Shown: positions 1,135 to 12,759 of the stretch, piece after piece
Layout of the letters: the number at the start of each line of letters is the position of its first letter
Position numbering within the stretch: position 1 is the stretch's first letter
Translations under genes and position numbers: made by a program
Assembly: GCF_000378305.1 (NCBI RefSeq)
Contig: NZ_KB899538.1
Span: forward strand, 310,001-374,000
Reading direction: 5' to 3'
Source: Thioalkalivibrio sp. ALJ12
GTDB lineage: Bacteria; Pseudomonadota; Gammaproteobacteria; Ectothiorhodospirales; Ectothiorhodospiraceae
DNA length: 64,000 bases
The notes under the pieces: model-generated
Told to the model about the DNA's origin: nothing
The model's input: only the letters and a program-made list of their open reading frames with translations
Databases searched by the model: none

Positions 1135-3201
1135 ATGAATCTCGCTGCGCCCAGCTATCTCCTGGCCACCCTCGCCTTCCTCGTCCTGGCAGTGCTGGCC
1201 CTGTGGACCTGGCGGCAGCGCCCGGGAAGCCTTTGGGTCGCGGGTGCCGCGCTGTTATCCGTGATCTGGGCGCTGCACATGGCGCTCGTGGCGCACGCGA
1301 TCGGCGAGGCCCCGGTCTCCGGCGGGGCCTTCGAGGTGCTGCGCAACGCCGGGTGGTTCGCGGTCCTGTTCGCGCTGCTCGCGCGCCGCGGCGAGCCGAG
1401 CACGCGTCCACCCGCACCTTTGCGCACGGCGATGATCGTCACCGCCGCACTGATGTTCGGGCTGTTCGCGGCTCTGGCCCTGCCGCTCCCGCTGACCTAT
1501 GGCGCCTGGGTGGGCACTGCGATGCTGGGCATGGCGGTGCTGGGTCTGGTCCTGGTCGAGCAGGTCTTTCGCAATACGCCCCTGCAACGGCGCTGGGAGA
1601 TCAAGTTCCTGAGCCTGGGCCTCGGGGCGATGTTCGCCTTCGACCTGTTCCTGTTTGCCGATCTCGTGCTGTTCGGGGCGATCAACAGCCCCGTCTGGCA
1701 AGCCCGCGGCCTGGTGAATGGCCTGGTCGTGCCATTGATCGCGATTTCCCTGGCCCGCCGGCCGCTGCAGGCCCGCGAGGCCCCGGTGGTCTCGCGCCAC
1801 CTGCTGTTTCACACCGCGGCGCTGATCGGCGCCGGGCTTTATCTGTTCGCCATCGGGGCCGCCGGGTACTACCTGCGACATGTCGGGGGCGATCTGGGTG
1901 CCTTCCTGCAGGTAGTGTTTCTGTTCGGCGCCGCATTGCTGCTGGCCGTCATCGTCGCCTCGGGCAGTCTGCGGTCGCGTCTGCGCGTCTTCCTGGCCAA
2001 GCACTTCTTTCGCTACTCGTTCGATTACCGCCAGGAGTGGCTGCGATTTACCGGCACGCTCTCGGCCGAGGATGACGAGATCCCGTTCCGCCAGCGCGCC
2101 ATCCAGGCGATCGGCGAGCTGGTGGACAGCCCCGGGGGGCTGCTGTGGGTGCGCGACCGCAACGGCCCCTACGCCCTGGAGGGAGTGCTGAACCTGGGCG
2201 ATCCGAGTTATCCCCCGGAGGAGCCCGACGGGGCGTTGGTGGAGTTCGTCGCGCGCACCGGCTGGGTGATCGACCTCAACGAATATCGCCGGGACCCCGA
2301 GCTGTATCAGGGCCTGCAACTGCCGGAATGGCTGGCACAGAACACGCGCCTGTGGGTGGTGGTGCCGCTGCTCAAGGGCGAGCGCCTGCAGGGGTTCGTC
2401 GTGCTCGCCCAGCCGCGCGCGCCGCGCAAGATCGACTGGGAGGAACGCGACCTCCTGAAGACCGCCGGGCGCCAGCTCGCGGTGTATGTCGCGCTGGTGC
2501 AGACCGACGAGGCCCTGCTGGAGGCCCGCCAGTTCGAGGCCTTTCACCGGCTGGCGGCGTTTCTGGTGCACGACCTCAAGAACGTCTCGGCCCAGTTGTC
2601 CCTGGTGTGTTCCAACGCGGAGCGTCACCTGTCCAATCCGGACTTTGTCCGCGACGCCCTGAATACGGTGAGCAATGCCCGCGACCGGCTGGAACGAACC
2701 CTGGCCCAGCTGCGCCACGCGCAGGCCACGCCCGACACACCGAGCCGCATCATCCCGCTGGACCGGCTGCTCGCCGAGGTCTCCGAGGCCAGCAGCCATC
2801 GCTCGCCCCTGCCGCGGCTGGACCTGCGCGAATCCGCGGCCGTCATCGGCGACCAGGAAGGTCTTAAAAATGTACTACTCAATCTTGTAAGAAACGCTCA
2901 AGAAGCTACGCCGGATGACGGCTCAATCAATCTCAATCTTTACACCGAAGGGGGTTGGGCTATTGTTCAAATTGAAGACACGGGGAGCGGTATGGAGCCG
3001 GCTTTTCTAAAAAATCGGCTCTTCAAGCCCTTTCAAACCACCAAGGGAAATGCAGGGATGGGGATTGGTTTATATGAGGCGCGGGATCGTGTTTTGCGCA
3101 TGGGCGGACGCATCACCGTCGACAGCGAGGCCGGCGTCGGAACGATCTTTACCCTGAAGCTCCCCTTGCAGATCGCACCGGCCATGGCTGAACCGTCATG
3201 A
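1135..3201 (+). CDS. prsK: PEP-CTERM system sensor histidine kinase PrsK
   Basis: A 688-residue membrane sensor kinase, partner of PrsR. The N-terminal ~290 residues are a run of hydrophobic helices, followed by a GAF-like sensory region (about 300-460). The phosphoacceptor is in the H-box FLVHDLKN (His about 479). The ATPase lobe carries the N-box (LLNLVRNAQEA, about 580), DTGSGM and GMGIGLYEA, so the kinase looks intact. This long N-terminal membrane part plus GAF plus HK layout is typical of PrsK (TIGR02916). Oddity: the stretch encoding the N and G boxes (about 2865-3105) has much lower GC than the rest; my count is 86/180 at 2881-3060, against 45/60 at 2701-2760. The stop overlaps a possible upstream start of prsR (ATGA). 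The signal sensed is unknown. Confidence 0.93.
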   Translation: MNLAAPSYLLATLAFLVLAVLALWTWRQRPGSLWVAGAALLSVIWALHMALVAHAIGEAPVSGGAFEVLRNAGWFAVLFALLARRGEPSTRPPAPLRTAMIVTAALMFGLFAALALPLPLTYGAWVGTAMLGMAVLGLVLVEQVFRNTPLQRRWEIKFLSLGLGAMFAFDLFLFADLVLFGAINSPVWQARGLVNGLVVPLIAISLARRPLQAREAPVVSRHLLFHTAALIGAGLYLFAIGAAGYYLRHVGGDLGAFLQVVFLFGAALLLAVIVASGSLRSRLRVFLAKHFFRYSFDYRQEWLRFTGTLSAEDDEIPFRQRAIQAIGELVDSPGGLLWVRDRNGPYALEGVLNLGDPSYPPEEPDGALVEFVARTGWVIDLNEYRRDPELYQGLQLPEWLAQNTRLWVVVPLLKGERLQGFVVLAQPRAPRKIDWEERDLLKTAGRQLAVYVALVQTDEALLEARQFEAFHRLAAFLVHDLKNVSAQLSLVCSNAERHLSNPDFVRDALNTVSNARDRLERTLAQLRHAQATPDTPSRIIPLDRLLAEVSEASSHRSPLPRLDLRESAAVIGDQEGLKNVLLNLVRNAQEATPDDGSINLNLYTEGGWAIVQIEDTGSGMEPAFLKNRLFKPFQTTKGNAGMGIGLYEARDRVLRMGGRITVDSEAGVGTIFTLKLPLQIAPAMAEPS

Positions 3202-3227
3202 AGGCCGCTGGTGATTGTGAGGGTTCC

Positions 3228-4565
3228 ATGCTGAAGCTTCTCATCGTCGAAGACGATCAGGGTCTGCGCAACCAACTGAGCTGGTGTTTTGAGGGATACG
3301 AGATCCTGGAGGCCGAGGACCGCGAAAGTGCCATGTCCAGGATGCGCCGCCATCAGCCGGAGTTGGTGACGCTGGACCTGGGCCTGCCGCCGGACCCGGC
3401 CAACGCCTCCGAGGGCCTGGCCCTGCTGCAGGACATCCTGGCGATGGACCCGGAGACCAAGGTCATTGTCGTCACTGGGAATGACGATCGCGAGAACGCG
3501 CTCAAGGCCGTGGCCCTGGGGGCCTACGACTACTACATCAAACCGGTCGAATCCGACCTGCTGCGGATGATCGTCGATCGCGCCGCTCACCTGTACGAGC
3601 TCGAGGCGGAGAACCGCAAGCTGGCACGCAGGCCCGGGGCATCCCTGAGCGGGGTCATCACCGCCGACCCGGGGATGCTGGATGTCTGCCGGGTGGTCGA
3701 GCGTGTCGCGCCCTCGGATGCCACCGTGCTGCTGCTGGGCGAGAGCGGCACCGGGAAGGAGGTGCTGGCGCGCGCCCTGCACGACCTGAGCGGGCGCGCC
3801 AGTGAACGCTTCGTGGCGATCAACTGCGCGGCGATCCCGGAGAACCTGCTGGAAAGCGAACTGTTCGGGTACGAGAAGGGCGCCTTTACCGGGGCCACGC
3901 GGCAGACCATCGGCCGCATCGAACACGCCAACAACGGGACCCTGTTCCTGGACGAGATTGGCGACCTGCCGCACAGCCTGCAGGCCAAGCTGCTGCGCTT
4001 TCTGCAGGAGCGCAAGATCGAACGCCTGGGCGGTCGCAGCGAGATCCCGGTCAACGTGCGCATCATCGGCGCCACGAACCAGGACCTGAAGGCGCTGATC
4101 CAGCGGGGCGAGTTCCGCGAAGACCTGTATTACCGCATCAGCGAGATCTCGGTCTCGATCCCCCCGCTGCGCGAGCGCAAAGGGGATGCAACGCTGCTGG
4201 CGCACTACCTGCTCGACCGCTTCACCCAGGATCAGCGACGGCCGCGCCGCGGCTTCACCCAGGATGCCACCCACGCGATCGAGGCCTACGACTGGCCGGG
4301 CAACGTGCGCGAGATGGAAAACCTGATCCGCCGCGCCGTGATCATGGCCGACAGCCAGTTGATTACCGCAAAGGACCTGGGCCTGGAGCCCCCCGAGGGC
4401 GAGGCCCCGGCGGTACGACTACGCGACATCCGCGACAGCGCGGAACACGAGGCCATCCTGAAGGCGATGGCCCGCAGCAAGAACAACATTGCCCAGGCCG
4501 CCGACCAGCTCGGAATCACACGGCCGACGCTCTACAGCCTGCTCGACAAATTTGGCCTGAGGTAA
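3228..4565 (+). CDS. prsR: PEP-CTERM-box response regulator PrsR, sigma-54 activator
   Basis: A 445-residue NtrC-family activator. The receiver domain begins MLKLLIVEDD, with the phosphoacceptor Asp50 in VTLDLGLPP. The central AAA+ domain has Walker A GESGTGKE (about 171), the sigma-54-contacting GAFTGA loop (about 218-223) and Walker B TLFLDEIGD. The C-terminus is a Fis-type helix-turn-helix (NNIAQAADQLGITRPTLYSLL). With GAFTGA present it should activate RpoN promoters, and two strong -24/-12 promoters lie downstream (8246, 12492). Start: I chose the ATG at 3228 because the family begins right at the receiver fold and a GAGGG lies just upstream. The in-frame ATG at 3198 overlaps the prsK stop and would add ten residues. 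Paired with PrsK. Confidence 0.93.
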   Translation: MLKLLIVEDDQGLRNQLSWCFEGYEILEAEDRESAMSRMRRHQPELVTLDLGLPPDPANASEGLALLQDILAMDPETKVIVVTGNDDRENALKAVALGAYDYYIKPVESDLLRMIVDRAAHLYELEAENRKLARRPGASLSGVITADPGMLDVCRVVERVAPSDATVLLLGESGTGKEVLARALHDLSGRASERFVAINCAAIPENLLESELFGYEKGAFTGATRQTIGRIEHANNGTLFLDEIGDLPHSLQAKLLRFLQERKIERLGGRSEIPVNVRIIGATNQDLKALIQRGEFREDLYYRISEISVSIPPLRERKGDATLLAHYLLDRFTQDQRRPRRGFTQDATHAIEAYDWPGNVREMENLIRRAVIMADSQLITAKDLGLEPPEGEAPAVRLRDIRDSAEHEAILKAMARSKNNIAQAADQLGITRPTLYSLLDKFGLR

Positions 4566-4572
4566 ACCCGCC

Positions 4573-7380
4573 ATGAAGACTCCCCGTTCTGTATCCCGTG
4601 TAGTGGGCTCGCCCCGCCGCACCCTCCCGCGCCTGGCCCCGTTGCTGATGGCGCTGACCCTGGTCGGTTGCGATGCCCTGGGCACCCCGACCGAGGCCGA
4701 GCACCGCGAACGTGCCGAGCGCCACATGGAGGCGGGCGAATATGCCGCAGCCACCATCGAATATCGCAACGCGCTGCAGCACAACCCGGACCCCGAGGTG
4801 CGCGGCCGCCTGGGCCTCGCCTATCTGCGCGACCAGCAGCCGGAACCGGCCGTGCGCCACCTGCAACGAGCCCTGGAGACCGGCGCGGACCCGAACGAGT
4901 ACGCCCTGCCCCTGGCGCGGCTGCTGTTCATGCTGGGCGGCAGTGGGGCAATCGCCGAGATCCCCGAGGCCGATGGCCTGGAAGGCGAGGATGCCGCGCG
5001 CCTGCTGGCCTATCGGTCGCTGGCGGCCTATCAGGCGGGAGACGCCACTGCCGGGTCGGATTATCTTGAGGTCGCCCGCGAGGCGCAGGACGACCTGGTC
5101 GAGATTCATCTGGCGCGCGCCTACAAGGCGATGTCCGATGGCGACGCCGAGCAGGCCATGAAGATGACCGACGCGGCCCTGGAAACGGACCCCGAGTTTT
5201 CCCCTGCCTGGTCCCTCAAGGGCGATCTGGAACGGGTGCAGGGCGACCCCGAGGCCGCGCTCAAAGCCTTTAGCCGTGCCGTCGAGCTGCGCCCGGATGC
5301 GATCGCGGAACGCCTGAAACGCGGGCTGATGCACGTCGAACTGGGGCAGTTCGACGAGGCCCGGGCCGATGCCAAATTCCTCAAGGATGGCGCACCCAAC
5401 CACGCCGGTGGCCACTTCCTGATGGGGCTGATCGAGTTCGAGACGGGTGAACCCCTGCAGGCTCGTCCCCATCTGGAAGAGGCGCTGGCGGCCTCGGCCA
5501 ACTACCGTCTCGCGATGCCCTATCTGGCGGCGATCCAGCTGGAAGAAGGCAACTGGTCCCAGGCGGAGCGTCTGCTGGAGCGCCATCATGCGCTGGGCCC
5601 GCCGAATGCGATGAGCTACCGGCTGCTGGCCCAGTTGCGCATCGAACAGGGCCGCACGCAGGAGGCGCGACGGATCCTGGCCGAGGCACTGAGCGAACGG
5701 CCCGACCTGATCGAGGCCCTGGGCGATCAGCTGGCCGCGCTGTACATCGGCGAGGGCGACACCGAAAGCGGGATCGAGGTCCTGCGCGAGGCCCTGGCCA
5801 ACCGCGCGGACCGCCCGGAGCTGCAGGAGATGCTGGGGATTGCCCTGGTGCGGCACGGCGATCACGAGCAGGGCATGGCGCTGCTGCACCGGGTCGCCAG
5901 CGAAAGCGCGGATGTACGTCTGGCCGACTACTCTGTGGCCCTGGCACATATCCGGGATGGGCAGTACGAGCAGGCCCTGGAGGCCACTCAGCGCCTGCGC
6001 GACAAGGACCCGGAAAACCCGCAGGGCTTCAACCTGATGGGCGCCGCCCTGCTGGGGCTGGGCGAAATCCACGAGGCCCGCCTGATCTACCAGGAAGGAT
6101 TGTCGCTCCACCCGGACAACAGCACCCTGGCACTGAACCTGAGCTCGCTCGAGGTCCGCCAGGGCAACCTGGAGACGGCCCGCGAGATCCTCGAGGACCT
6201 GCAGGAACGCGACCCCGGGCATTCCACTTCGGCGATTCGGCTGGCAACACTGCACTTTCAGCAGGGCGAGATGGAAGCCGGCAAGCGTTGGCTGCAGGAC
6301 GCAATCGAGGCACACCCGGATCGGATCGAGCCCTACCTGATGCTGGCACGCGCCCAGAACCAGCAGGAGGATCACGCCGCCGCCCGATCCACCCTGGAAA
6401 AAGCACGCGAACATCACCCCAACGACACCCGAGTGCTGGGCCTGCTGGTCGATCTGCAGGAACGCGAAGGGGACTTCGCGGGCGCGGCACAGACGCTTGG
6501 GCACCTGGCCATATTGCGGCCGGATGCCGCGGAGCTGCGCTTCCGGCAGGCGCGTAATCTCGCCGCGCTGGGCGAGACCGAGCAGGCGGTCACGGCCCTG
6601 CGCGAGACGCTGTCGATCGACTCCAGCCACATGAGCGCGCGCATGGTGCTGACCCGCCACCTGAGTCTGGCCGGCGAGGTCGACGAGGCGCGTCAGGTCT
6701 TCGAGCCCGTCGCGGAACGCGCCCCGGAGGCGGCGCAGGTGATCGCGCAGCAGGCCTGGTTCGACGCGCAAGCCGGCGAGCTCGAAAAAGCGATCGAAGG
6801 CTACGAACGCGCCCTTGAGCGCGAGTCCCGACGCGACTGGCTGGTGGAGAAATACCAGGCTCAGCAGCGCGCCGGCCATTCCGAGGCGGCCCTGGAGACG
6901 CTGAAGGGCTGGCTGCAGGACCACCCGGAAGATGCGGCCTCGCGCCACCTGCTCGGCTCGGCACAGATCAACGCCGGCCACGAGGCCGAGGCCCTGGAAA
7001 CCTACGAAACAGTGCTGGAACAGCGGCCCAACGATGTCATCGCGCTGAACAATGCGGCGTGGCTGGCCCGCGAGACCGACAACCCTCGCGCCCGCGAGTA
7101 CGCCCAGCGAGCCGTCGAGCTGGCCCCGGATCAGCCCGCGATTCTCGACACCCTGGGCGTGGTGCTGCTGGAGGGCGGCGACACCGAGAGCGCCCTGGAG
7201 ACCCTGCAGCGAGCCTACCGGATGAGCCCGCAGGCACCGGATATCGGGTTCCATCTGGCACAGGCCTACCAGGCCAGCGGCGAAACCGAACAGGCGCGCG
7301 CCCTGCTGACGGAGCTACTGGAGGCCCACGAAGACTTCCCGGAACGCGAACGGGCCCAGTCGCTGCGCGAGTCGCTATAG
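4573..7380 (+). CDS. prsT: PEP-CTERM system TPR-repeat lipoprotein PrsT
   Basis: A 935-residue envelope lipoprotein. The N-terminus has a basic region, a hydrophobic stretch and a lipobox (LTLVGC, Cys33), predicting lipid attachment after signal peptidase II cleavage. Nearly all the rest is degenerate TPR repeats of about 34 residues with the usual small/aromatic pattern (for example AAWLARETDNPRAREYAQ and YQASGETEQARALLTELL). Length and composition match PrsT (TIGR02917), the third member of the prsK-prsR-prsT set. It probably scaffolds the envelope assembly complex, but its partner is not known. It starts 7 bases after prsR and ends before a strong hairpin at 7409. A very long antisense frame exists here but is a GC artefact. 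Confidence 0.93.
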   Translation: MKTPRSVSRVVGSPRRTLPRLAPLLMALTLVGCDALGTPTEAEHRERAERHMEAGEYAAATIEYRNALQHNPDPEVRGRLGLAYLRDQQPEPAVRHLQRALETGADPNEYALPLARLLFMLGGSGAIAEIPEADGLEGEDAARLLAYRSLAAYQAGDATAGSDYLEVAREAQDDLVEIHLARAYKAMSDGDAEQAMKMTDAALETDPEFSPAWSLKGDLERVQGDPEAALKAFSRAVELRPDAIAERLKRGLMHVELGQFDEARADAKFLKDGAPNHAGGHFLMGLIEFETGEPLQARPHLEEALAASANYRLAMPYLAAIQLEEGNWSQAERLLERHHALGPPNAMSYRLLAQLRIEQGRTQEARRILAEALSERPDLIEALGDQLAALYIGEGDTESGIEVLREALANRADRPELQEMLGIALVRHGDHEQGMALLHRVASESADVRLADYSVALAHIRDGQYEQALEATQRLRDKDPENPQGFNLMGAALLGLGEIHEARLIYQEGLSLHPDNSTLALNLSSLEVRQGNLETAREILEDLQERDPGHSTSAIRLATLHFQQGEMEAGKRWLQDAIEAHPDRIEPYLMLARAQNQQEDHAAARSTLEKAREHHPNDTRVLGLLVDLQEREGDFAGAAQTLGHLAILRPDAAELRFRQARNLAALGETEQAVTALRETLSIDSSHMSARMVLTRHLSLAGEVDEARQVFEPVAERAPEAAQVIAQQAWFDAQAGELEKAIEGYERALERESRRDWLVEKYQAQQRAGHSEAALETLKGWLQDHPEDAASRHLLGSAQINAGHEAEALETYETVLEQRPNDVIALNNAAWLARETDNPRAREYAQRAVELAPDQPAILDTLGVVLLEGGDTESALETLQRAYRMSPQAPDIGFHLAQAYQASGETEQARALLTELLEAHEDFPERERAQSLRESL

Positions 7381-8118: not shown

Positions 8119-8175
8119 GTGACATCTCCTTCACGGAAAGAACGGCCGAACCCCCAACCCCCGCCGTCCGTTTTT

Positions 8176-8242
8176 TTTACATGGCCCCTTTACAAGACCA
8201 GAACCAAAACATGAAAACCTCTGTTAAATCCTACAGTTAAAT
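8176..8242 (+). repeat. Short repeated motifs upstream of the sigma-54 promoter (possible activator sites)
   Basis: Two TTTACA hexamers (8176-8181 and 8189-8194) lie about 52-70 bases upstream of the -24 element. Two copies of GTTAAAT (8223-8229 and 8236-8242), 13 bases apart, lie directly upstream of the promoter. The first TTTACA overlaps a T8 run at 8171-8178. NtrC-type activators bind repeated sites in such positions, but the PrsR site is not known to me and AT-rich hexamers can recur by chance. Confidence 0.3.
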
Positions 8243-8245
8243 GGT

Positions 8246-8262
8246 TTGGCACGCAGCCTGCT
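8246..8262 (+). promoter_or_regulatory. Sigma-54 (RpoN) -24/-12 promoter of the PEP-CTERM gene
   Basis: The sequence TTGGCACGCAGCCTGCT matches the RpoN consensus YTGGCACGrNNNTTGCW almost base for base. GG is at 8248-8249 and GC at 8260-8261, with exactly ten bases between. Transcription would begin near 8273, giving a leader of about 80 bases before the ATG at 8356. The sigma-54 activator PrsR is encoded 3.7 kb away. Confidence 0.88.
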
Positions 8263-8355
8263 TTACTTCACTCGCAAGACAGGACGACTAGCAAATTGAA
8301 GTGGAAGTAAGCGTTAACCCAAACACATTGAAGCTAACTGGTGGAGGATTTCAAC

Positions 8356-9186
8356 ATGGAAAGGTTCAAGCAAACAGCGCTGGGGGCGGTACTGGCAATA
8401 GCCAGTCTGGGGCTTGCGGGCACCGCACATGCCGGCGTCTTTACGATTGATGATTCGCAGCTCGATCTCTCGACGATCGCAGTCGGCGAACGTCAGGTTG
8501 ACCGTATTACCGGCGGGTATGAGGAGCTGCTGACCCTCGATACCGACGGTTCCTTCGACGCGGCGGCCTACTGGAACGTAGGTCAGTACTTCCTTGGGGG
8601 TACAAGCGTCAGCAATCGCCTGGGCGCCAGCGGGGACGATGGTGATCTGTTCTATGGCCTGTATGCCGTGTTCCAGTCCTCCGGGACTTTCGACGCGGGC
8701 ACGGGCGAATTCACCGGCACCACCGGCTCGATCGCGCTCTACCTGGACCCGGACCTGAATACCACGTTCGGGTTTACCTCGGGCGATGCGGCCGACGGTG
8801 TGGCCCTGGGCGGCACGGGCGACGACATCCTCGTCGGCTGGTCCGACATCTTCGAGCGGGGTGCTGGTCGCTTTGAACCCGGCTCGGACGATATCGGCAG
8901 CTTCGCGCTGATCTTCAACGAGTGGATGCTGACGGATGAAGGCAAGCAATTCTTCACCAGCCCGGACCCGTTCTACATGAATGTCCGTGTATCGGGCCAG
9001 TTCGACTTTATCGAGGGTTTCGAGGAAGTCGATCAGCGCACTACGTTTGATGTGGTCGGCTCCGCCGACGCCCGGTGGTACGGGGTCCCCGAGCCGGGCA
9101 TGCTGCTTCTGCTGGGAACCGGACTGGTATTGCTCGGCTTCGTCGCCACGCGACGCCGCCGCCGCGACACCGGCCTGGCTGCCTAG
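8356..9186 (+). CDS. PEP-CTERM sorted surface/secreted protein, resembles flocculation-associated PepA
   Basis: A 276-residue exported protein and the likely substrate of the exosortase encoded at 21230. It has an N-terminal signal peptide (MERFKQTALGAVLAIASLG, cleavage probably after AHA near residue 26). The mature part is acidic and glycine-rich. The C-terminus has the sorting signal: VPEP, then a hydrophobic helix (GMLLLLGTGLVLLGFVA), then an arginine cluster (RRRRR). Internal features (GGYEELL, a YGLYAVFQSSGTF segment, LYLDPDLNTTFGF) recall the PepA proteins needed for floc formation in Zoogloea; I hold that sub-assignment with moderate confidence. The start ATG at 8356 was chosen over a GTG at 8341 because GGTGGAGG (8340-8347) is its ribosome site. 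Transcription is likely RpoN/PrsR dependent. Confidence 0.9.
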   Translation: MERFKQTALGAVLAIASLGLAGTAHAGVFTIDDSQLDLSTIAVGERQVDRITGGYEELLTLDTDGSFDAAAYWNVGQYFLGGTSVSNRLGASGDDGDLFYGLYAVFQSSGTFDAGTGEFTGTTGSIALYLDPDLNTTFGFTSGDAADGVALGGTGDDILVGWSDIFERGAGRFEPGSDDIGSFALIFNEWMLTDEGKQFFTSPDPFYMNVRVSGQFDFIEGFEEVDQRTTFDVVGSADARWYGVPEPGMLLLLGTGLVLLGFVATRRRRRDTGLAA

Positions 9187-9239
9187 CAGCCCTTGTGGTT
9201 GGGCCTTCTGCTCCCCCCTGGGTGGAAAGCCTCTCCCGG

Positions 9240-9268
9240 CCCCTCGTCTTCGGACGAGGGGTTTTTTT
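9240..9268 (+). terminator. Intrinsic terminator after the PEP-CTERM gene
   Basis: A perfect 9-bp GC-rich stem (9240-9248 with 9253-9261) closes a TTCG tetraloop and is followed by seven T residues (9262-9268). It lies 53 bases after the stop of the PEP-CTERM gene. Together with the sigma-54 promoter this makes that gene a single-gene transcript. It is a textbook factor-independent terminator. Confidence 0.93.
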
Positions 9269-9308
9269 ATGTCTGGATATACGAAACGCGAGGCTGGATG
9301 TCGGCTGT

Positions 9309-10184
9309 TCAGACCTGAGCCCGCAGGCGCGCGAGCCGGCGGCGGCCGATGGCCAGTAGCAGGCGTTGCAGGGGGTTGCGATTGCCACCGGGGCGCCAGG
9401 TGCGGGCGAGGCGCTGGCGGTAGGCATCGAAGTGAACGCCGTGCGGGGCCCAGACGACACGGCCGCGTCCCAGCAGGATCTTCAGGGCCTCGGTACCCAT
9501 CACCCCGGCGCACAGCTCGCAGGCCATCACGGTGGACGGGCCATGCTGCGCCCTCAGGTCGACGGCGGCAGGATCGGCCAGATAGCCCATCTGCATCATC
9601 GACGGGGCCAGGCCCATCATGAAACGCAGCGCCAGCTCCTCGTCGGGCAATCCATCGCGCAGGTCGAAGTAGTCATCGAACGACAGACCACCCGGGCGGA
9701 AATTGAGCAATGCGGCCCCCATGCCGAGCGGGGCCACGGTGATCGCCGGGATCCCCCGCTCCGCGCACGCGGCGAAGACCTCGCGGCGGACCTGAAACAC
9801 GAAAAAGTCGAGCCCGTCGACGTAGAGATCCACACCCTGCAGGAAGGCCTCCAGATTGTGCTGGTACACCCCCTCCGGGAATGTGGTGATCTCGAGCTCC
9901 GGATTGATGTCCAGCGCCATCTCGCGCAGGACCTCGACCTTGGGTCGGCCCAAACGGGACATGCCGGCCCCCGCCTGGCGGTTCATGTTGTGCAGCTCGA
10001 AGCAGTCGAAATCCGCGATATGAAAGCGCCCCACCCCCAGGCGGGCGAGCGTCAGCAGATGGCTCCCGCCGACACCGCCAAGACCGGCGATCGCCACCCG
10101 CGCACCGCGCAGGCGTTCCATCTCCGGCCAGGTGACCCAGCCGTGGGTGCGCCGGAACGCCGCGTGATAGTCGAACTCAGGCAT
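9309..10184 (-). CDS. ThiF/MoeB/E1-like adenylyltransferase of the PEP-CTERM acyltransferase operon
   Basis: A 291-residue E1-like Rossmann protein. Residues 34-40 give the ATP-binding GLGGVGG, followed by the acidic IADFD, the NMNRQ segment with the conserved Arg and Gln, and a later substrate-side region. Only one CxxC (CELC) is visible, whereas MoeB and ThiF normally carry two zinc CxxC pairs, and no obvious thioester Cys stands out. The family adenylates the C-terminal carboxylate of a ubiquitin-like protein or a small acid; the partner here is unknown and no beta-grasp protein is encoded in this window. Its ATG overlaps the stop of the upstream acyltransferase (ATGA), so the two are translationally coupled. 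It is the last gene of the PilZ-acyltransferase operon. Confidence 0.88.
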   Translation of the reverse strand: MPEFDYHAAFRRTHGWVTWPEMERLRGARVAIAGLGGVGGSHLLTLARLGVGRFHIADFDCFELHNMNRQAGAGMSRLGRPKVEVLREMALDINPELEITTFPEGVYQHNLEAFLQGVDLYVDGLDFFVFQVRREVFAACAERGIPAITVAPLGMGAALLNFRPGGLSFDDYFDLRDGLPDEELALRFMMGLAPSMMQMGYLADPAAVDLRAQHGPSTVMACELCAGVMGTEALKILLGRGRVVWAPHGVHFDAYRQRLARTWRPGGNRNPLQRLLLAIGRRRLARLRAQV

Positions 10185-10960
10185 CAGGCCGCGCTGGCAA
10201 TAGCGTCCCAGAGAGAGTCGGAGGGATGAGGGTCGGAGAGATTGGTATAGGAGTGTGCATACAGCTGGCTCAGCGATGGAGAACGGTGAATCCCGGACAG
10301 GGCTGTAAGCAGACTAATATGAAATGGCGCGCGGCGACCGTGGTAGTTCTGAAGCGTGCCGATCTGCTTCACCTTCAGGCCGTGGCGCCGCAGGATGCGC
10401 GCCAGCGACGGCTCCATCATGGCGAAGGCATGCGAGCGGCCCTGGATCTCCATCATGGCGACCGCACTCATGAACAGGCTCAACGCCAGCAGCGGGAAGG
10501 TGCGCGCCTGCTCCAGAGGCACATTCAGCAGGTGCAGGTCCCCGACAGGCGTGACCGACTCCCCCAGACGTCGCCGGAACAGGCCATTGACGGCCAGCCG
10601 GGAGACCTCGCAGATCGCGTCCCGCTCCAGCCGGTCCGGGCGAAATTCGGTCTCGTAAAAGCAGTTATCGCAGTGGCGCTCCATCGGGAGTTCGTGGATC
10701 TTCTGACGCGCGTCGACATGCACGACCCGGACGCATCCCGCGTGGGTACCGCTCACCACATGCTCCAGCAGGCAATGCGTGGACTGGGCGTCATATTCGT
10801 CGATCTCGCGCTCGCCCGGGCAGTTCTCCGGAGACTCGTAACGAAACTCTCGGCAGTAGACCTCGTAGCGCAGTCGGTACACCGCCTCCAGTTGCTCCTT
10901 GTCCGGCTTCACCAGAGAAAAATAGCGGCAGAATGCCGTGATGAGCGGGTCATCCTGCAC
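10184..10960 (-). CDS. PEP-CTERM/exosortase system-associated acyltransferase, second copy
   Basis: A 258-residue protein of the LuxI-like N-acyltransferase family found with exosortase loci (TIGR03694-like). The N-terminal third has the autoinducer-synthase signature layout: LRYEVYCREFRYE (Arg31, Glu38), then an acidic EIDEYDAQSTH segment (residues 52-62) that parallels the conserved acidic pair of LuxI. Later come ICEVSRLAV and a FAMMEPSLARIL core. LuxI relatives take an acyl group from acyl-ACP or acyl-CoA; the acceptor is unknown here. Start: GTG at 10960 with GGAAG six bases upstream, giving an 11-base overlap with the preceding gene. A longer frame up to 11068 would overlap the neighbour by 119 bases and is unlikely. 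Paralogue of the gene just upstream. Confidence 0.85.
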   Translation of the reverse strand: MQDDPLITAFCRYFSLVKPDKEQLEAVYRLRYEVYCREFRYESPENCPGEREIDEYDAQSTHCLLEHVVSGTHAGCVRVVHVDARQKIHELPMERHCDNCFYETEFRPDRLERDAICEVSRLAVNGLFRRRLGESVTPVGDLHLLNVPLEQARTFPLLALSLFMSAVAMMEIQGRSHAFAMMEPSLARILRRHGLKVKQIGTLQNYHGRRAPFHISLLTALSGIHRSPSLSQLYAHSYTNLSDPHPSDSLWDAIASAA

Positions 10961-11807
10961 AGGGCACTTCCATAGCCCTTGGGGCGTGATACACACGCGG
11001 GCGCCAGCAACGCTTGTACCCCGGCGCCGCGCGGTACGGGAACGGTGGGTGCCCGGCCAGTTGCGCATAGTGGGGACGCGCCGGTGCGTCGCCCAGCCCC
11101 AGCCGGCGGCGCCAGGCGGACAGCGCCACGCCGGACTCGGCAGTCAATGCACGAAACGGCAGCCGCAGCCCCCGGTGATCACAGGCCTCGCCACACAGCT
11201 CGATGGGGATATGGTGGCGCTGGAGCAGACGCGCGAGGGCTGGTCGAATCATGAACAGCAGAAAGTCATACCCGTGGTCTTCGGCATAGGCCTGGGCGGC
11301 CTGGCAAAGGTGATACAGCAAACGCGGCGATCCGCGTTCCGGTGAACCACGAGCAATCAGACGGGAAACCTCGAGCACCCGCGGGGACTCGACCCTGGGC
11401 GTCGCGAAGGCATCCTCAAACAGATGCCCGGCGGCCATGGTCGGGAGGAGACCCGCCTCCGGCCGGATCAGACGCATGGCGCCAACCCAGTGCCCACCGT
11501 CGTACAGCCCGCCCATCCGCACCAGAAAATGAGCGGCGTGCTCGTCGTGGATGTCGCGCTCGAAACCTTCCGGGTAACGCTCGGCCGCTTCGAAACCAGT
11601 CTCCAGACAGTACACCGCGTAGCGCATCCGATAGTGGATGCGACGCGCCCGGGCGCCCGTGGCGAGATACACCTGATAGGACGGGGAGTGCCCATCCGGC
11701 AGGCAACGATCTGAGGTGGGGCGTCCCGGTTCGACGCCAGCATGGGTATACAAACGTTCGTCCTCCATTGCGTAATTCAATACGGATTTCCCCGGCCAGA
11801 GGCGCAT
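10950..11807 (-). CDS. PEP-CTERM/exosortase system-associated acyltransferase, first copy
   Basis: About 285 residues, same LuxI-like acyltransferase family as its downstream neighbour. The shared landmarks are MRYAVYCLETGFE, the acidic DIHDEHAAHFL, VLEVSRLIARG and FLLFMIRPALARLLQRHHIPIELCG. The two copies are well diverged, so this is an old duplication or two separate recruitments. The start is uncertain: I chose the ATG at 11807, four bases after the PilZ gene stop; ATGs at 11846 (overlapping PilZ by 34 bases) and 11768 are possible. No signal peptide or membrane helix is evident, so it should act in the cytoplasm. Having two copies suggests two acyl donors, two acceptors, or a heteromeric enzyme. 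Confidence 0.83.
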   Translation of the reverse strand: MRLWPGKSVLNYAMEDERLYTHAGVEPGRPTSDRCLPDGHSPSYQVYLATGARARRIHYRMRYAVYCLETGFEAAERYPEGFERDIHDEHAAHFLVRMGGLYDGGHWVGAMRLIRPEAGLLPTMAAGHLFEDAFATPRVESPRVLEVSRLIARGSPERGSPRLLYHLCQAAQAYAEDHGYDFLLFMIRPALARLLQRHHIPIELCGEACDHRGLRLPFRALTAESGVALSAWRRRLGLGDAPARPHYAQLAGHPPFPYRAAPGYKRCWRPRVYHAPRAMEVPCAG

Positions 11808-11811
11808 GCCT

Positions 11812-12405
11812 TCAAGCCGTCGTGTCGATGCGTTGACCCGGACCATTGCGCCTGAGAAAACGCAGGCCCAGACCCACTCGGCGATCGGATACCACGACGG
11901 CATCGAAGGTCCCGGCGGTCGGGAGCATTAGCTGCAAGGCGGTATCCGGCGGCAAATACGGGTACTGCCCGACCAGCGCAATCCGCGCGCCACCACGCGA
12001 AAGATCCATCAGGCGGCACTTGCGCCACTCCTTTCGGATGCCGATCTCGGTCAGCAGGTTGACCGCATACCGAGGCCAGCAGCGCTGCTCGGGCCGGCCG
12101 GGTGTCTTGCGGCCGTAGCGCCAGGCGAATGCGGCCGACCAGTGCCTCGGGTTCGGCGAACAGGCGTAGAGATCGGCCTGAGCCGGATCCGTAATCGGGG
12201 GTTCCCCGAGTCGGTCGATTACGGCCTCCACCAGCTGTCCGGCCCAGGACTCGTACTCTTCGTCACTGGCACTGAACCGATGGAGCTGTCGGTAGATGTC
12301 GTTCATCAGCGCGAGGCGCTCGCTCCAGTTCCGCTTGAGCATGGCGGGATGCCAGAACTCCGCCAGATTCTGCGCGAGACTTCTCTGGCCCAGATCGTCG
12401 TGCAT
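11812..12405 (-). CDS. PilZ-domain protein (cyclic-di-GMP binding)
   Basis: A 197-residue cytoplasmic protein, first gene of a four-gene operon. The C-terminal part is a PilZ domain: the c-di-GMP binding RxxxR is RCWPR (Arg108, Arg112), followed by a beta-strand (YAVNLLTEIGI) and DLSRGGARI (residues 134-142), matching D/NxSxxG. The N-terminal ~100 residues are helical and not recognised; they may be the output or partner-binding part. The start ATG at 12405 is supported by GGAGGG eight bases upstream. Because both PilZ motifs are intact, it probably senses c-di-GMP and ties the acyltransferase/E1 operon, or the polysaccharide machinery, to biofilm signalling. A sigma-54 promoter lies 71-87 bases upstream. 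Confidence 0.88.
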   Translation of the reverse strand: MHDDLGQRSLAQNLAEFWHPAMLKRNWSERLALMNDIYRQLHRFSASDEEYESWAGQLVEAVIDRLGEPPITDPAQADLYACSPNPRHWSAAFAWRYGRKTPGRPEQRCWPRYAVNLLTEIGIRKEWRKCRLMDLSRGGARIALVGQYPYLPPDTALQLMLPTAGTFDAVVVSDRRVGLGLRFLRRNGPGQRIDTTA

Positions 12406-12475
12406 TTGAGAATCCCTCCCAACCGCCAGGCCACCCCCCTGCCGCAGCCGTTTCGAGCCTAATCGAACAAAGCCC

Positions 12476-12492
12476 AGCAAACTGCGTACCAG
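12476..12492 (-). promoter_or_regulatory. Sigma-54 (RpoN) -24/-12 promoter of the PilZ-acyltransferase-ThiF operon
   Basis: Read on the minus strand the sequence is CTGGTACGCAGTTTGCT. It fits the RpoN consensus with one -24 mismatch and a perfect TTGCT at -12; GG (12490-12489) and GC (12478-12477) are separated by exactly ten bases. It shares TGG-n-ACGCAG and TGCT with the promoter at 8246-8262. Transcription would start near 12465, 60 bases before the PilZ ATG. Confidence 0.82.
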
Positions 12493-12564
12493 TTAACGTA
12501 AACCCCTGATCCGTTATAAAACCGCGAAAATTTATTAGAAAACTCAGCTTCAAAATTTTTTCAG

Positions 12565-12591
12565 GTGTAAACATTCTCGACACGTGTAGAC
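12565..12591. repeat. Direct repeat GTGTAAAC / GTGTAGAC, possible activator site
   Basis: Two 8-base copies (12565-12572 and 12584-12591) differ at one base and start 19 bases apart; the second overlaps an ACACGTGT palindrome. They lie about 75-100 bases upstream of the minus-strand sigma-54 promoter, where an enhancer-binding regulator such as PrsR would bind. The core read in the promoter's direction (TTTACA) also occurs twice upstream of the other sigma-54 promoter. Suggestive only. Confidence 0.3.
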
Positions 12592-12759
12592 AAGGGAAAA
12601 CAAACGATCTTCAATAGCCCTAGACGTCTCCCGAGGTGGGGCTCAAGCAAGGTGCCAATCGACCTTGCGGGGAACCCTTTTACCGGAGAACTGTTACTCC
12701 GTTCGAAGACCCACAAGGCGTCATTGAACGTCAAAGGGTTTAACAGGGGGCAACAAGAA

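What the first reader, a model, noticed from the sequence alone, without database searches (positions are those of the whole stretch)
8246..12492. Two matching RpoN promoters beside prsK/prsR define a compact PEP-CTERM regulon
TTGGCACGCAGCCTGCT (8246, plus) precedes the PEP-CTERM gene, and CTGGTACGCAGTTTGCT (12492 to 12476, minus) precedes the PilZ-acyltransferase-ThiF operon. Both have GG-N10-GC spacing and agree with each other at 14 of 17 positions, all three differences being C/T. PrsR has an intact GAFTGA loop, so one kinase/activator pair may switch on both a sorted surface protein and its modification enzymes. The second target would be a less expected member of the regulon.
Basis: partly seen in the sequence, partly recalled or inferred. 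Interest (0 to 1): 0.72.

Follow-up and report, generated by a model that had tools for sequence, protein, structure and literature searches.

The report
PrsR/RpoN promoters of a surface-protein regulon
Two divergent gene units next to a surface-protein-sorting cluster carry the same complete two-part switch (activator site plus RpoN promoter); the switch was described in 2006, but one of the units it drives here, a c-di-GMP-receptor/lipid-amide operon, appears to be a new target, and its two parts turn out to be spaced in whole turns of the DNA helix.

Summary
Both -24/-12 sites exist at the stated places, but match at 13 of 17 positions, not 14. Alone they prove little: similar sites are no commoner in the genome than a reversed control (34 vs 29). 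Each is preceded, 64 and 73 nt upstream, by the 17-bp YGTC-N7-TTTACA site that Haft et al. (2006) assigned to PrsR. A model trained on PEP-CTERM promoters finds exactly these two sites in the 64-kb window. Site 1 drives pepA, from a known RpoN-dependent family. Site 2 drives PilZ + two N-acyl-amino-acid-synthase-like enzymes + a ThiF/E1-like protein. Site 2 is conserved before that operon in all 11 other Thioalkalivibrio loci examined, so the second target is supported; "modification of the sorted protein" is not. Following the element through 370 Gammaproteobacteria: (i) activator-promoter spacing is quantized at about 51/62/73/84/95 bp, helical turns of about 11 bp; (ii) an IHF-like site often sits between; (iii) another non-PEP-CTERM target is the uncharacterised HPr-rel-A cassette, present just beyond the window. 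The regulatory kind is known; the operon target, phasing and HPr-rel-A link were not found in the library searched.

The parts
1135..3201 (+). prsK, sensor histidine kinase
   Evidence: TIGR02916 716 bits, cutoff 300
3198..4565 (+). prsR, sigma-54-dependent response regulator with intact GAFTGA
   Evidence: TIGR02915 708 bits, cutoff 502.6; sequence
4573..7380 (+). prsT, TPR protein of the XrtA/PEP-CTERM system
   Evidence: TIGR02917 587 bits
8165..8181 (+). PrsR-type activator site (motif 1) of pepA: CGTCCGTTTTTTTTACA
   Evidence: matches Haft motif 1; conserved in relatives L078, L082
8246..8262 (+). -24/-12 RpoN promoter of pepA: TTGGCACGCAGCCTGCT, 64 nt after motif 1
   Evidence: identical in L078 and conserved in L082; its TGGCAC and CTGCTT hexamers equal the mapped pepA promoter of Aquincola
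8356..9186 (+). pepA, flocculation-associated PEP-CTERM protein
   Evidence: NF033554 175 bits, cutoff 80; PEP-CTERM tail PF07589
9309..10184 (-). ThiF/E1-like adenylyltransferase-fold protein
   Evidence: NF006077 490 bits, PF00899
10184..11068 (-). N-acyl-amino-acid-synthase-like acyltransferase 2
   Evidence: TIGR03694 203 bits, cutoff 112; PF13444, PF21926 FeeM; start codon uncertain
10950..11903 (-). N-acyl-amino-acid-synthase-like acyltransferase 1 (divergent copy)
   Evidence: TIGR03694 103 bits (below cutoff), PF13444, FeeM; start codon uncertain
11812..12405 (-). PilZ-domain protein, first gene of the operon, with DxSxxG c-di-GMP signature
   Evidence: PF07238; DxSxxG in all eight orthologs checked
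12476..12492 (-). -24/-12 RpoN promoter of the PilZ operon: CTGGTACGCAGTTTGCT, 73 nt after motif 1
   Evidence: conserved in front of all PilZ orthologs examined
12499..12511 (-). IHF-like site GATCAGGGGTTTA (one mismatch to WATCARNNNNTTR) between motif 1 and the promoter
   Evidence: kept in L078 and L082
12566..12582 (-). PrsR-type activator site (motif 1) of the PilZ operon: TGTCGAGAATGTTTACA
   Evidence: TGTCG-N4-TGTTTACA kept in all eight aligned relatives, at 73-75 nt in seven; the eighth (L074) has a TGTT variant copy at 73

Best explanation
The two sites are genuine enhancer-dependent RpoN promoters of the PrsK/PrsR regulon. PrsR, phosphorylated by PrsK, binds the 17-bp site YGTC-N7-TTTACA upstream of each promoter. 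The DNA is looped, probably with IHF's help, and PrsR's AAA+ domain opens RpoN-RNA polymerase at the -24/-12 element. One signal thus switches on pepA (a matrix protein sorted by the exosortase) and, divergently, an operon of a PilZ c-di-GMP receptor, two N-acyl-amino-acid-synthase-like enzymes and an E1-like protein. Most likely the operon makes a c-di-GMP-tuned lipo-amide or related small product that accompanies the matrix, rather than modifying PepA. Shown by sequence: both elements, their spacing, their conservation, the co-occurrence with PrsK. Inferred: PrsR binding, IHF action, actual transcription, and the product of the operon.
For: A PWM trained on PEP-CTERM promoters only ranks the pepA site first and the PilZ site second; no other composite in 64 kb passes the scan. 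Motif 1 occurs only 8 times in the genome; these include pepA, the PilZ operon, and sites in front of both other PEP-CTERM genes. Composite 46 vs 1 control in 47 family genomes; all 20 positive genomes have PrsK (28 of 47 do), none of the 19 without. 11 of 11 PilZ-operon loci from other Thioalkalivibrio keep motif 1 + -24/-12 at 73-75 nt although PilZ itself is down to 40% identity. ThiF homolog in 21 genomes, all PrsK+. pepA promoter hexamers equal those mapped in Aquincola, where pepA needs RpoN1. Spacing is phased to helical turns across 93 genomes.
Against: No binding or expression data for this organism. The genome has other RpoN activators, so PrsR is assigned by motif and co-occurrence only. 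The PilZ-operon promoter was found only in Thioalkalivibrio. pepA's IHF-like site is weak (two mismatches). In Aquincola a prsK or prsKR plasmid did not restore flocs in a prsK mutant, so the PrsK step is unproven even there.
Confidence: 0.86

Rival explanations
1. The pepA site is a real PrsR/RpoN promoter, but the PilZ-side -24/-12 is a chance match in AT-rich intergenic DNA.
For: -24/-12 matches alone are not enriched in the genome (34 vs 29 control).
Against: Composite score 41.2 bits vs 23.1 maximum in shuffles; both elements and their 73-75 spacing kept in 11 other loci while the rest of the spacer diverged.
Confidence: 0.04
2. Both are RpoN promoters but answer to another RpoN activator, or to several (for example a PrsR paralogue).
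For: Other sigma-54 activators exist in the genome (L066 hits); some relatives have a PrsR-like activator whose own gene carries the element (L097/L117).
Against: The activator site matches the PEP-CTERM motif 1, whose distribution tracks PrsK (Haft 2006).
Confidence: 0.08
3. The operon's enzymes covalently modify PEP-CTERM proteins, for example acylation after E1-type activation. This rival concerns the operon's job, not the promoters.
For: Predicted co-regulation, adjacency to pepA, and ThiF seen only in PrsK+ genomes.
Against: The acyltransferase family (PF13444/FeeM/TIGR03694; nearest solved structures are AHL synthases) is known to make free N-acyl amino acids (Craig et al. 2011, cited in PMC11511702 and PMC9762135); nothing here shows a protein substrate.
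Confidence: 0.15

Closest known systems
PEP-CTERM cis-regulatory element (motif 1 + sigma-54 motif 2) with PrsK/PrsR, Haft et al. 2006, PMC1569441
   Same: Same 17-nt motif ending in TTTACA, same -24/-12 motif, spacing within its range, same regulators beside the EPS locus.
   Different: Haft gave the spacer as mean 62.8, SD 10.6; here it is a series of discrete phases about 11 bp apart. Haft mentioned a few sites before other, unnamed genes; here two such target classes are named.
RpoN1-dependent pepA promoter of Aquincola tertiaricarbonis RN12, PMC9850573
   Same: PepA gene, TGGCAC and CTGCTT hexamers at the mapped -24/-12, RpoN dependence, predicted enhancer upstream.
   Different: No PilZ/acyltransferase/ThiF target reported there; the window has no experimental data.
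[quoted passage not shown] known here through citing papers)
   Same: Same acyltransferase family beside an exosortase system.
   Different: Here they lie in a PilZ-led operon with ThiF under a PrsR/RpoN-type promoter; that control was not found in the library.

Membership tests
PrsR/RpoN PEP-CTERM promoter element | 17-nt motif 1 ending in TTTACA | tested here: met
   Both promoters
PrsR/RpoN PEP-CTERM promoter element | motif 1 to motif 2 spacing of 32-92 nt | tested here: met
   64 and 73 nt
PrsR/RpoN PEP-CTERM promoter element | -24 GG / -12 GC motif at 23-221 nt before the start codon | tested here: met
   93 nt (pepA) and 70 nt (PilZ)
PrsR/RpoN PEP-CTERM promoter element | genome encodes PrsK, PrsR and RpoN | tested here: met
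PrsR/RpoN PEP-CTERM promoter element | precedes a PEP-CTERM gene | tested here: inconclusive
   Met for pepA; not met for the PilZ operon, though Haft already saw a few sites before other genes
PrsR/RpoN PEP-CTERM promoter element | PrsR binds motif 1 and RpoN transcribes from motif 2 | not testable with these tools
   Needs footprinting and start-site mapping
[quoted passage not shown]
   Acyltransferase 2 over cutoff (203 vs 112); acyltransferase 1 below it (103)
[quoted passage not shown]
   Invariant R46, D69, D72, R93, E133, R136 in alignment A1 of acyltransferase 2; equivalence to LuxI residues is from memory of that family
[quoted passage not shown]
   Needs expression and mass spectrometry
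PepA (flocculation-associated PEP-CTERM protein) | NF033554 above cutoff with PEP-CTERM tail | tested here: met
   175 bits vs 80

The most novel reading that the evidence does not exclude
The PrsK/PrsR/RpoN system is a general matrix-assembly switch whose enhancers are locked to one face of the helix (spacings 51/62/73/84/95 bp, often with an IHF-like site between), and which drives, besides PEP-CTERM proteins, a c-di-GMP-receptor/N-acyl-amino-acid/E1-like operon in Thioalkalivibrio and the orphan HPr-rel-A peptide cassette in several Gammaproteobacteria.
Probability: 0.65. Interest if true: 0.66.

Novelty: new member of a known kind. Interest (0 to 1): 0.5.

Why it matters
It ties N-acyl amino acid synthases and an E1-like enzyme, long noted beside exosortases, to the same switch as the sorted surface proteins, and puts a c-di-GMP receptor at the head of that operon. 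The quantized spacing turns a loosely described 2006 motif pair into a precise architecture that can be searched and tested, and it gives the orphan HPr-rel-A cassette a first regulatory context.

Tried and rejected
Judging the promoters from -24/-12 matches alone: rejected, no enrichment over the reversed pattern. The TTTACA copy nearest the pepA promoter (about 49 nt upstream) as the activator site: rejected, not conserved in relatives, whereas the copy at 8165-8181 is. One family-wide search used a wrong spacing (N7 instead of N6) and was repeated. Apparent 650-720-aa ThiF 'fusions' in Thioalkalivibrio are only open frame upstream of the match; in Ectothiorhodospira the frame really continues past the ThiF domain to about 650 aa. 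Composite hits inside coding sequence (L067 in prsT, L099 in a transporter gene) are treated as probable chance. Acyltransferase operons outside Thioalkalivibrio: no strict composite in front of them among 80 loci; there the element precedes nearby PEP-CTERM genes. Craig 2011 is not held, so it is cited through other papers.

Full report
OBSERVATION. They share 13 of 17 bases, with four C/T differences, not 14. PrsK, PrsR (GAFTGA intact), PrsT, a PepA-family PEP-CTERM protein, a PilZ protein, two TIGR03694/PF13444-type acyltransferases and a ThiF protein are confirmed. The genome (2.78 Mb; nearest named relatives are Thioalkalivibrio) has one RpoN gene.

CHANCE. The decisive element lies upstream. 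Haft et al. 2006 (PMC1569441) described a 17-nt motif ending in TTTACA, a spacer of 62.8 +/- 10.6 nt, then a sigma-54 motif, upstream of 99 of 167 proteobacterial PEP-CTERM genes, tracking PrsK/PrsR/PrsT. Here YGTC-N7-TTTACA lies 64 nt before the pepA promoter (8165-8181) and 73 nt before the PilZ promoter (12566-12582, minus). A weight-matrix model trained only on PEP-CTERM sites, which include pepA itself, gives 47.3 bits for pepA and 41.2 for the PilZ site (not in the training set), no other passing hit in the window, and at most 23.1 in 60 shuffled windows.

GENOME. GTC-N7-TTTACA occurs eight times in the genome (control 2). These include pepA, the PilZ operon and sites in front of the only other two PEP-CTERM genes (contig C3). 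For the first of those two a nearer copy with a changed last base, TGTCACACTTTTTTACG, lies 83 nt before ATGGCACCGTTTCTGCA and is the better candidate; the second has TGTCCGGTTTTTTTACA 86 nt before ATGGCACGAAGCGTGCT. A further site (C1:374787) lies before an HPr-rel-A operon, with a weak -24. So the predicted regulon is five units, not two.

CONSERVATION OF THE SECOND TARGET. PilZ-acyltransferase-acyltransferase-ThiF, divergent from the chain-length gene, is conserved in Thioalkalivibrio. Aligned upstream regions keep TGTCG-N4-TGTTTACA and a -24/-12 at 73-75 nt while the rest drifts; in L074/L148 (T. halophilus) the copy in phase reads TGTT rather than TGTC. All 11 PilZ loci in the named collection have the pair, with PilZ identity down to 40%. 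The strict composite occurs in 20 of 47 family genomes, 46 hits vs 1 control, all 20 with PrsK above cutoff. The ThiF homolog occurs in 21 genomes, all PrsK+. Outside Thioalkalivibrio the element near acyltransferases precedes PEP-CTERM genes instead (30 hits in all vs 0 control in 80 loci).

HELICAL PHASING. In 370 Gammaproteobacteria genomes two searches gave 212 composite sites in 93 genomes, against nine control hits. The spacer lengths are not a broad bell: they cluster at 50-52, 61-64, 72-74, 84-86 and about 93-95, with nothing at 55-58 and one at 66-68. Rayleigh R is 0.685 near 11 bp, null maximum 0.22; with one site per genome R is 0.69, null maximum 0.30. No fuller correction for relatedness was made. 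pepA (64) and PilZ (73-75) sit on neighbouring turns. This is what an activator that must contact the polymerase from a fixed face of a short loop would leave.

IHF-LIKE SITE. 57% of spacers hold a match to WATCARNNNNTTR with at most one mismatch, against 14% in shuffles. Excluding the PilZ group it is 54 of 94 against a Markov-null mean of 12.6 and maximum of 24, with matches concentrated 30-32 or 42-43 nt (one orientation) or 18-19 nt (the other) before the promoter. The PilZ promoter has one (one mismatch, 12499-12511); pepA's is weak. No paper in the library holds both PEP-CTERM and IHF. IHF genes were not searched for.

WHAT THE OPERON MAY DO. Both acyltransferases match PF13444 and the FeeM N-acyl amino acid synthase model; alignment A1 keeps R46, D69, D72, R93, E133 and R136, and the nearest solved structures are AHL synthases. 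PEP-CTERM-linked members make long-chain N-acyl amino acids (Craig 2011, cited in PMC11511702 and PMC9762135). ThiF resembles ThiF/MoeB and, more weakly, the peptide-adenylating MccB/PaaA. The PilZ protein keeps DxSxxG in all eight orthologs. I infer a c-di-GMP-tuned small lipo-amide product rather than modification of PepA, with moderate confidence.

HPr-REL-A. Eight further composite sites outside this genome precede a secreted-looking protein with an Arg-Arg signal and Cys residues; four members tested in each of NCBIfam and Pfam had no match. In this genome the next genes are TIGR04353 (PqqD-type) and TIGR04352 (HprK-related kinase A, 410 bits). TIGR04352 also follows in the six other loci tested (L255, L262, L267, L275, L276, L213; genes cut by the locus end in five, three of them under the cutoff). 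This is a second recurrent non-PEP-CTERM target class. No paper in the library links the two.

VERDICT. The control system is known. New, as far as the held library shows: the PilZ/NAS/ThiF target, the helical phasing with an IHF-like site, and the HPr-rel-A target. Transcription itself is untested.

Noticed in passing
L137:4784-8120 (genome C1:374784-378120, starting 0.8 kb beyond the window's right end): HPr-rel-A cassette (secreted RRR-signal protein, PqqD-type chaperone TIGR04353, HprK-related kinase A TIGR04352) behind a PrsR-type site and a weak -24/-12, spacer 82; same arrangement in L255, L262, L267, L275, L276, L213, and the first gene also in L100 and L107.
   Followed up: partly
L097, L117 (Ectothiorhodospira loci): The PrsR/RpoN element precedes a gene for a PrsR-like sigma-54 activator (393 bits to TIGR02915, below cutoff, N-terminal 99 residues unmatched), suggesting a cascade or feedback.
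   Followed up: no
L098, L118: Composite element, spacer 96, in front of what reads like a polysaccharide-export (Wza-like) gene in two family genomes, so EPS export itself may join the regulon there.
   Followed up: no
window 12582-12640 (minus): Further conserved blocks upstream of the PilZ activator site (TGTCYACA and an ATTGAAG-GTTT block) shared by nearly all of the eight aligned relatives; possibly a second PrsR dimer site or part of the divergent gene's promoter.
   Followed up: no
L083, L072 (Ectothiorhodospira): ThiF homologs continue into a C-terminal part of about 360 aa not present in the window's protein.
   Followed up: partly
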